Below, in pieces: positions 27,497 through 42,118 of a stretch of 47,697 nucleotides of DNA (positions are counted from its first letter, which is position 1; each line of letters opens with the position of its first letter). The DNA comes from Dehalococcoidia bacterium (GTDB taxonomy: Bacteria; Chloroflexota; Dehalococcoidia; SHYD01), in NCBI GenBank assembly GCA_009692945.1, contig SHYD01000010.1, positions 1-47,697 of the forward strand. The letters are read 5' to 3'. The notes under the pieces are model-generated. The model had not been told where the DNA came from. It did not search any database and worked only from the letters and a program-made list of their open reading frames with translations. A program made the translations under genes and the position numbers.

Positions 27497-27890
27497 CGTA
27501 TCTATTCAGACGCCCATGACCACGGGGACACCACCGGTTCATGAAAAGGCCAGGACGGCCCCCCCAAGATCACTCACGGCGGACTGGGCACGCCCCTTGA
27601 CTCCCCTCCCCGCTGGAGGAGAAACAAAGAGATGTTTGGTGAGGGTACACCCCTCACGCTCCCCGCCAGCGGGAGACCCGCGGGACACCCCTGGCGGAGA
27701 TTCTGTTCCTGGTCAGCCACCGCCTTTCACAGCAGTGTCAGGGGTTCGGGGATATGAGCCACTCCCCCACCCCAGGAACAAAGAGGTGAATTCTATGTGG
27801 GGGGGCACCCTCACTCCCCCGGCAGAGGGCTGCCGCCCTCGTGCACTCCCACTCCTGAGCCCGGCCGCCCCTCAACGGTGAATTCTTACG
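27497..27890 (+). repeat. Family-1 element, long composite copy with perfect target duplication
   Basis: The left end is CGTATCTATTCAGAC and the right end, on the other strand, is CGTAAGAATTCACC. It is flanked by TGACAG at 27491-27496 and 27891-27896, 6 of 6 identical. It carries module B (CACCACCGGTTCATGAAAAGG, CCCCGCCAGCGGGAGACC) followed by a forward module A (27738-27880) that is nearly identical to 38260-38395. Non-coding. Confidence 0.9.
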
Positions 27891-38247: not shown

Positions 38248-38416
38248 CGTATCTATTCAGTCTCAGGGGTTCGGGGGATATGAGCCACTCCCCCAACCCC
38301 AGGAAAAAAGAGGAGAATTCTATGTGGGTGGCACCCCCACTCCCCCGGCAGAGGGCTGCCGCCCTCATGCACTCCCACTCCTGAGCCCAATACCCCCTGA
38401 ATTGTGAACTCCTACG
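38248..38416 (+). repeat. Family-1 element, near-identical to the copy at 27738-27880
   Basis: The left end is CGTATCTATTCAGTC and the right end, on the other strand, is CGTAGGAGTTCAC. A second CGAACTCCTACT end lies about 55 bp further on (38459-38470). The body matches the 27738-27880 module over about 125 bp with only a handful of differences. The flanks GGGGCT and TCCAGT do not match, so the insertion site may have been rearranged. Confidence 0.82.
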
Positions 38417-41480: not shown

Positions 41481-42118
41481 GGCAACTACACAGACTCCCA
41501 TGCCCACGGGACACCACCGGTTCATGAAAAGGCTAAGACGTCGACCTCCCCCCAAGATCACTGATGGCGGAAGCGGCGCGCCCCTTGGCCCCCTCCCCGC
41601 CGGAGGAGAAATAAAGAGCGGGAGACCCGCTGGACTCCCTGGAGAGATGCGGTTCCTGGGGAACCACCGCCTCTTTACAGAGTGGGGGGGGCGGCCGGGC
41701 TCAGGAGCGGGAGTGTACGAGGGCGGCAGCCCTCTGAGTTTGTGAGTTTTTGGCGTTCCGGGGTAGTTTTGGCCGCAAGCCAGGCATGAAATGGGGGCGA
41801 TTTCGGCTCGATCCAACAAAAAGTCACAAACTCTCTGCCGGGGGAGTGGAGGTGCCCCCATAAGAGTGGGCACCTTTTTGGTTTGTGCCTGAGCGAGCTG
41901 TTCGAACACGGGGTGTGCAGAGGGGGCGAAGCCCCTTCTGCCGGGGTGTGGGGTGTCCCCACACACAAACGGAATGGGTGGGTGGGAAGTACAGCCTCCG
42001 AAGTCGTCCGAGAAGAAACCTGCCCACTCCTATGGGGTGCTCCCCACAGCGAATTCTCCTTTTTCCCGGGGTGGGGGACGTGGTTCATGCGGCCGGCCCC
42101 TGATTCTGAACTCATACC
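41481..42118. repeat. Nested cluster of family-1 repeats
   Basis: Several copies are piled up. A forward module B starts GGCAACTACACAGAC (41481), with CACGGGACACCACCGG and GGTTCATGAAAAGG following. A reverse module A (41690-41880) is split by the 96-bp element at 41737. At least one more reverse module A runs to the right end, GGTATGAGTTCAGA on the minus strand at 42118. All ORFs here are proline/glycine-rich readings of the repeat. No gene lies in the 770-bp gap. Confidence 0.8.
41737..41832 (+). mobile_element. 96-bp MITE-like element (second family) inside a family-1 repeat
   Basis: Terminal inverted repeats AGTTTGTGAGTTTTT (41737-41751) and AAAAAGTCACAAACT (41818-41832) match at 14 of 15 positions. 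The element is flanked by CTCTG at 41732-41736 and 41833-41837. Removing it and one CTCTG restores the family-1 hairpin order (GGCAGCCCTCTG directly followed by CCGGGGG) seen in other copies. It is too short to code for a transposase. Confidence 0.85.

What the first reader, a model, noticed from the sequence alone, without database searches (positions are those of the whole stretch)
41732..41837. A second, 96-bp element inserted into a family-1 repeat
Ends of 15 bp (AGTTTGTGAGTTTTT and its near-perfect inverse) and a 5-bp CTCTG duplication bound 41737-41832. Excising the element plus one CTCTG restores the normal order of the host repeat. This gives a relative date, since the family-1 element was there first, and shows that two different non-autonomous families have been active.
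Basis: seen in the sequence. Interest (0 to 1): 0.65.

Follow-up and report, generated by a model that had tools for sequence, protein, structure and literature searches.

The report
Six-copy miniature transposon hitting one site
A 96-base non-coding piece of DNA sits six times in this bacterial genome, each time at the same point and in the same direction inside a common hairpin repeat, so it is probably a miniature transposon with a very strict landing place, moved by an enzyme that was not found in the assembled genome.

Summary
In detail: 41737-41832 is a 96-bp element with 16-bp ends (15/16 matching) flanked by CTCTG on both sides. It is one of six full-length copies (89-100% identical) in the genome. 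The occupied repeats are not a clade (AU p 3e-7; each is nearer an empty copy), so the element inserted repeatedly into already diversified repeats rather than riding along with one. It is best read as a non-autonomous, MITE-like element with single-site, single-orientation targeting of a REP-like repeat. No autonomous partner with these ends was found in the own genome or sampled relatives. Whether CTCTG is a true 5-bp target duplication (DDE transposase) or part of an IS1111-like element without duplication cannot be decided, because every copy landed on CTCTG. Insertion sequences that target REPs are known; a gene-less miniature doing so without exception is an uncommon variant. Interest moderate.

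The parts
41737..41832 (+). 96-bp non-coding MITE-like element (copy 1 of 6)
   Evidence: six copies, 89-100% identical, 77 of 96 columns invariant
41737..41752 (+). left terminal inverted repeat AGTTTGTGAGTTTTTG
41817..41832 (-). right terminal inverted repeat, reverse complement AGTTTGTGACTTTTTG (15/16 to the left)
41732..41736 (+). left copy of CTCTG (target-site duplication, or bases shared by element and target)
   Evidence: 6 of 6 copies have it
41833..41837 (+). right copy of CTCTG
   Evidence: 6 of 6 copies have it
41688..41736 (+). left part of the interrupted host repeat (approximate outer end, from alignment to empty copy L029)
41838..41937 (+). right part of the interrupted host repeat (approximate; the comparison was cut at 100 bp, so the repeat may go on)
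41719..41736 (+). target hairpin GAGGG-CGGCAG-CCCTC plus TG, at whose 3' foot the element sits
   Evidence: 115 uninterrupted counterparts in the genome

Best explanation
It is a non-autonomous miniature transposable element (MITE-like, 96 bp, no coding capacity, 16-bp terminal inverted repeats) that is mobilised in trans by a transposase not found in the assembled genome. It inserts only at the 3' foot of the hairpin of a high-copy REP-like repeat (GAGGG-loop-CCCTCTG^CYGG), always in the same orientation. Shown: six copies; one site and orientation; presence in repeats that had already diverged; 115 empty sites. Inferred: movement in trans by a target-selective transposase. Open: DDE transposition with a 5-bp CTCTG duplication (which I hold somewhat more likely) or IS1111/IS110-type recombination without duplication.
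For: Six full-length copies on six contigs, each CTCTG|element|CTCTG in the same hairpin repeat and orientation (6 of 6; 6 of 6 left halves, 5 of 6 right halves matched by its stricter pattern). 115 uninterrupted target sites, control 0. Element identity exceeds identity of both 60-bp flanks in 15 of 15 pairs (88-98% against 45-89%). For 6 of 6 occupied repeats the best match is an empty copy, not another occupied one (59 distinct empty copies compared). On a tree of the 65 repeats the six need 6 changes of state, and one clade is rejected (AU p 3e-7). Two copies have decayed ends without compensation, as expected after insertion.
Against: No autonomous element with these ends: own-genome end search with up to 3 mismatches gives 14 hits, 11 of them in the six copies, 3 unpaired, reversed control 8; no facing pair of ends around 21 transposase hits from five genomes of the order; none in 392 other class genomes or 399 other phylum genomes. 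No orthologous empty site in a sister genome. Only six copies, so 6/6 orientation alone would be p about 0.03 by chance. The tree rests on 120 short columns. Part of the low flank identity comes from sequence beyond the repeat. Spread by gene conversion between repeats is not formally excluded.
Confidence: 0.8

Rival explanations
1. Composite repeat: the element inserted once into one host repeat and the nested pair was then copied together (or the element is simply an optional module of the host repeat).
For: All six copies share the site and orientation, as one ancestral insertion would give; two pairs of occupied repeats share nearly identical 30-bp left flanks (97% and 93%).
Against: Occupied repeats fall in several subtypes, each nearer to an empty copy; one clade rejected, AU p 3e-7; 60-bp flanks less alike than the element in 15 of 15 pairs.
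Confidence: 0.1
2. IS1111-type element: the true unit is 101 bp without target duplication, one CTCTG being divided between its two termini. With 6 bp outside the left and 3 bp outside the right subterminal repeat (TTTGTGAGTTTTTG, 13/14), it was moved by an RNA-guided DEDD transposase acting in trans, which explains the fixed site and orientation.
For: IS1111 members insert at a specific site in the correct orientation, also in palindromic repeats, and reported duplications are called misassigned ends (PMC11187229 passages). The termini can be cut as 6/3, a spacing that paper calls occasional. A relic of an IS110-type transposase exists in the genome (PF02371, C56).
Against: The usual 7/3 spacing cannot be obtained. 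The inverted repeat reaches 2-3 bases further out than such a unit needs. The IS110 relic and three relatives have no such ends.
Confidence: 0.3
3. 98-bp element with 17-bp ends GAGTTTGTGA... and a 3-bp TCT duplication, as in IS5-type groups with GAG ends (group features recalled, from no call).
For: The sequence allows this cut: the base pair outside the 16-bp ends is G/C and TCT is repeated.
Against: Needs two coincident flanking bases, so a 5-bp duplication is the simpler cut; the one DDE_Tnp_1 gene of uncertain type in the genome (C7, cut by the contig start) shows no such end.
Confidence: 0.12
4. Spread of the element between host repeats by ectopic gene conversion instead of transposition.
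For: Would also keep site and orientation; host repeats are numerous.
Against: No shared conversion tract: ungapped 30-bp flanks next to the element range from 43 to 97% identity; homology on the left is mostly only 20-70 bp long.
Confidence: 0.07

Closest known systems
REP-targeting insertion sequences, 'type 1 association' (ISPsy8, ISPa11, ISPpu9, ISPpu10, ISRm22, ISRm19; PMC1525189: abstract, Results section and passages read)
   Same: Every copy breaks a high-copy palindromic extragenic repeat at the same base; ISPsy8 and ISRm22 with short direct repeats, ISPa11 without.
   Different: Those are autonomous ISs of the IS3, IS110 and IS4 families; this is a 96-bp element without any gene, in another organism, with another repeat.
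IS1111 of Coxiella inserted in the REP of QMITE2 (PMC5896051, passages read)
   Same: Nested order: a mobile element put at a fixed place of a REP-containing dispersed repeat (20 of 21 IS1111 copies in that paper).
   Different: There the insert is the autonomous IS; here the insert is the miniature element.
Bacterial MITEs in general (PMC10969869 passages; PMC3733652 passage: 70-300 bp, 15-30 bp TIRs, no coding capacity)
   Same: Size, ends, no coding capacity, several copies, intergenic.
   Different: 6 of 6 copies share one base and one orientation, stricter than the intergenic preference described in the passages read. No parent IS found.
IS1182-like transposon of the same genome (C60, C37; PF13751/DUF772; family name by recall)
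   Same: A DDE transposon resident in the same genome.
   Different: Its ends (AGAAGTCCGGYCGG type) do not resemble AGTTTGTGA; it is not the parent.

Membership tests
MITE | Short (about 70-300 bp), no transposase gene | tested here: met
   96 bp; six-frame translation leaves room for at most 32 codons
MITE | Terminal inverted repeats | tested here: met
   15 of 16 bp
MITE | Several dispersed copies | tested here: met
   6 full-length copies on 6 contigs, 89-100% identical
MITE | Target-site duplication of target-derived bases | tested here: inconclusive
   CTCTG on both sides in 6 of 6, but the 5-mer is CTCTG in 36 of 38 empty copies examined, so its origin cannot be told
MITE | Autonomous parent with the same ends | tested here: inconclusive
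   None found; the genome is only 81% complete and relatives are distant, so absence is not final
IS1111-type element | Subterminal inverted repeats of about 11-13 bp with asymmetric extensions (7/3, occasionally 6/3) | tested here: inconclusive
   6/3 possible with a 14-bp repeat, 7/3 impossible (definitions from PMC11187229)
IS1111-type element | Fixed target and orientation | tested here: met
   6 of 6
IS1111-type element | DEDD transposase gene and guide-RNA region in the element | tested here: not met
   No coding capacity in 96 bp; one PF02371 relic elsewhere in the genome without such ends; it could at most be a passenger of such a system
REP-targeting 'type 1' association | 100% of copies at the same position of a palindromic extragenic repeat | tested here: met
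   6 of 6; target hairpin with 115 empty counterparts
REP (the host repeat) | High-copy extragenic palindrome linked to a RAYT gene | not tested
   Copy number and hairpin seen; no search for a RAYT gene was made

The most novel reading that the evidence does not exclude
The element is a guide-RNA-dependent miniature: a 101-bp non-coding passenger of an IS1111/IS110-type (seekRNA or bridge-RNA) system, carrying only recognised ends and landing, without target duplication, at one programmed site in a tagged hairpin repeat of which the genome offers over a hundred copies. That would make it a natural counterpart of the laboratory 'mini IS'.
Probability: 0.22. Interest if true: 0.65.

Novelty: new variant of a known kind. 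Interest (0 to 1): 0.4.

Why it matters
Strict targeting of dispersed hairpin repeats lets an element multiply without breaking genes. The cases I found described are autonomous insertion sequences; a 96-bp passenger that keeps the same strictness would show that the ends and a trans-acting machinery suffice. It also gives a clean natural data set (six filled and over a hundred empty sites) for deciding between DDE and RNA-guided targeting once the parent is found. The nesting gives a relative order: host repeat first, miniature later. The result is of interest to specialists in mobile DNA, not beyond.

Tried and rejected
Searches for a parent IS: ends with up to 3 mismatches in the own genome, exact ends in 393 class and 400 phylum genomes (the samples overlap), a 19-bp pattern in the public genome collection (25 single hits, about what chance gives by my own rough estimate) and a 16-bp pattern in viral contigs (80 stretches listed, possibly a cap); no facing pair of ends in any of these 105 loci. 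Whole element: no match in plasmids or phages; 0 of 392 other class genomes (there at most two candidates per genome were scored) and 0 of 2 other family genomes. Rfam: only a tRNA elsewhere in the window. The element as a structured RNA: most of the outer pairing is the terminal repeats, one compensatory pair in 33; not pursued. IS1182-like and other DDE genes as parents: ends differ. The idea that the composite repeat was amplified as one unit: rejected. Other elements in the same target: in the 105 own-genome sequences held (368 kb, with overlaps) 29 + 3 empty left halves (the 3 have a changed base just downstream), 6 with this element, none with another insert. Literature: searches listed no paper whose title or abstract start describes a MITE restricted to one site of a repeat; this is a statement about those seven searches of an open-access library only. 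Papers: PMC1525189 abstract, Results section and passages; PMC11187229, PMC5896051, PMC10969869, PMC3733652 and PMC11208160 passages; all others listing only.

Full report
What is there. The window holds at 41737-41832 a 96-bp element whose ends are inverted repeats of 16 bp with one mismatch, and which is flanked on both sides by CTCTG. Removing the element and one CTCTG joins GAGGGCGGCAGCCCTCTG to CCGGGGGAGTGG, the uninterrupted order of a repeat that occurs elsewhere in the window (inverted pairs of 41688-41736 with 27823-27871 and of 41697-41736 with 38349-38388).

The element is repeated. A search of the window's own genome (2,501,484 bases, 99 contigs, 81% complete) with the 96 bp gives six full-length copies, 100, 98, 96, 95, 93 and 89% identical to the window copy, on contigs C49 (window), C96, C66, C37, C52 and C88; six further short matches have E above 0.1 and are noise. 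The exact 15-bp end, one mismatch allowed, occurs nine times, all within these copies, with a reversed control of 0.

All six are at the same place. Reading out the flanks shows ...CCCTCTG | element | CTCTGC[CT]GG... in 6 of 6 copies and the same orientation of element and host repeat in 6 of 6. The host hairpins differ among them (GAGGG-CGGCAG-CCCTC, GAGGGG-CGCAG-CCCCTC, GAGGGG-CGGGAG-CCCCTC, GAGGG-CTGCCG-CCCTC, GAGAGG-CGCAG-CCCCTC, GAGGG-CGGGAG-CCCTC). The uninterrupted target (GAGGGN{5,8}CCCTCTGCYGG) occurs 115 times in the genome, 60 on one strand and 55 on the other, reversed control 0. In the own-genome sequences held (105 sequences, 368 kb with overlaps), left halves of the target were followed by the right half in 32 cases (29 by the strict pattern, 3 with one changed base), by this element in 6, and by nothing else.

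Independent insertions or one composite repeat. With 59 distinct empty copies from the fetched loci, every one of the six occupied repeats (flanks joined) has its best match among the empty copies: for example the window copy 91.3% over 149 bp to an empty copy against 84.0% over 150 bp to the best occupied one; the C88 copy 91.3% over 150 bp against 84% over 150 bp. The element is more alike than either 60-bp flank in 15 of 15 pairs (88-98% against 45-89%; part of this comes from sequence outside the repeat). Within 30 bp two left flanks (C96/C52 97%, C49/C88 90%) are as alike as or more alike than the element. On a maximum-likelihood tree of the 65 repeats the six need six changes of state, and a tree holding them together is rejected (difference 111 log units, AU p 3e-7; 120 columns, quick method, few resolved forks). 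So the element was most likely put several times into repeats that had already diverged.

How it works. The element has no coding capacity, and its consensus fold is in good part the terminal repeats pairing, with one compensatory change in 33 pairs and decay of the ends in two copies. It is therefore read as a passenger. The selection of one base in a hairpin repeat and of one orientation must then come from a transposase, possibly with a guide RNA (inference). That transposase was not found: ends with up to three mismatches occur 14 times in the own genome, 11 in the six copies and 3 unpaired (reversed control 8). The own genome has one PF02371 (IS110-type) relic and three PF01609 hits: an IS1182-like gene at C60 (PF13751, PF05598; the family name is recalled) and a similar one cut by the contig end at C37, both with quite different ends, and a gene cut by the contig start at C7. 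No facing pair of AGTTTGTGA-type ends with up to five mismatches flanks any of the 21 transposase hits from five genomes of the order. The assembly is incomplete, so a parent may be missing.

The duplication question. The repeated CTCTG can be a 5-bp target duplication. It can also be cut as a 98-bp element with a 3-bp TCT duplication, or as a 101-bp IS1111-like unit without duplication. For the last, the general form of the outer extensions is (k+x, 5-k+x), which allows 6/3 but not 7/3; the seekRNA paper gives 7/3 as the rule and 6/3 as occasional, and states that duplications reported for this group are misassigned ends (PMC11187229, passages). The host repeat carries CTCTG at this place in 36 of 38 empty copies, and all six insertions fell on CTCTG, so the data cannot decide. 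I give the DDE reading a modest edge because the inverted repeats run to the very edge of the CTCTG.

Relatives. The element was not found in the two other genomes of the family or in 392 other class genomes (at most two candidates per genome scored), plasmids or phages. The exact end was absent from 392 other class genomes and 399 other phylum genomes. Scans of the public genome collection and of viral contigs gave only single, unpaired ends. No sister genome with an empty orthologous site was therefore available.

Gene context. Of 12 ORFs chosen as the neighbours of the six copies, 9 have Pfam families (among others a methyltransferase and a class II aldolase for the window copy) and none of these 9 is interrupted; shorter overlapping reading frames were mostly not examined further.

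What is known. Insertion sequences that always break a REP at one base are described (ISPsy8, ISPa11, ISPpu9, ISPpu10, ISRm22, ISRm19; PMC1525189, Results section), from five IS families in all when looser associations are counted. In Coxiella 20 of 21 IS1111 copies lie in the REP of a MITE (PMC5896051, passages). The present case differs in that the strictly targeted insert is itself the miniature, gene-less element. None of my seven literature searches listed a paper about that by title or abstract start. I therefore class it as a new variant of a known kind with moderate interest.

Noticed in passing
L231-L260 and genome-wide counts: The target motif, a hairpin of variable stem and loop followed by a constant CTCTGCYGGGG tag, occurs in 23 of 393 class genomes (own 111, G031 33, G281 9, G024 5; one reversed-control hit seen, in G131). 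In G031 the loops differ while the tag stays, which looks like a tagged-palindrome (REP-like) superfamily of this class.
   Followed up: partly
L222 about 620-2525 (G000:C60) and L224 1-1760 (G000:C37): An IS1182-like transposon (552-aa frame at C60; PF13751, DUF772) with ends of the type AGAAGTCCGGYCGG; at C60 it seems, by eye and untested, to interrupt a hydrolase-like gene.
   Followed up: no
window 41880-41970 and the right flank of L006 (C88 copy): Downstream of the host repeat at the window and C88 copies lies another hairpin repeat ending in TTCTGCCGGGG in place of CTCTGCCGGGG; none of the six insertions used such a site.
   Followed up: no
G000:C56:4907-5104 (L203): A short relic of an IS110-type transposase (PF02371, 57 bits) without recognisable ends of the AGTTTGTGA type.
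   Followed up: partly
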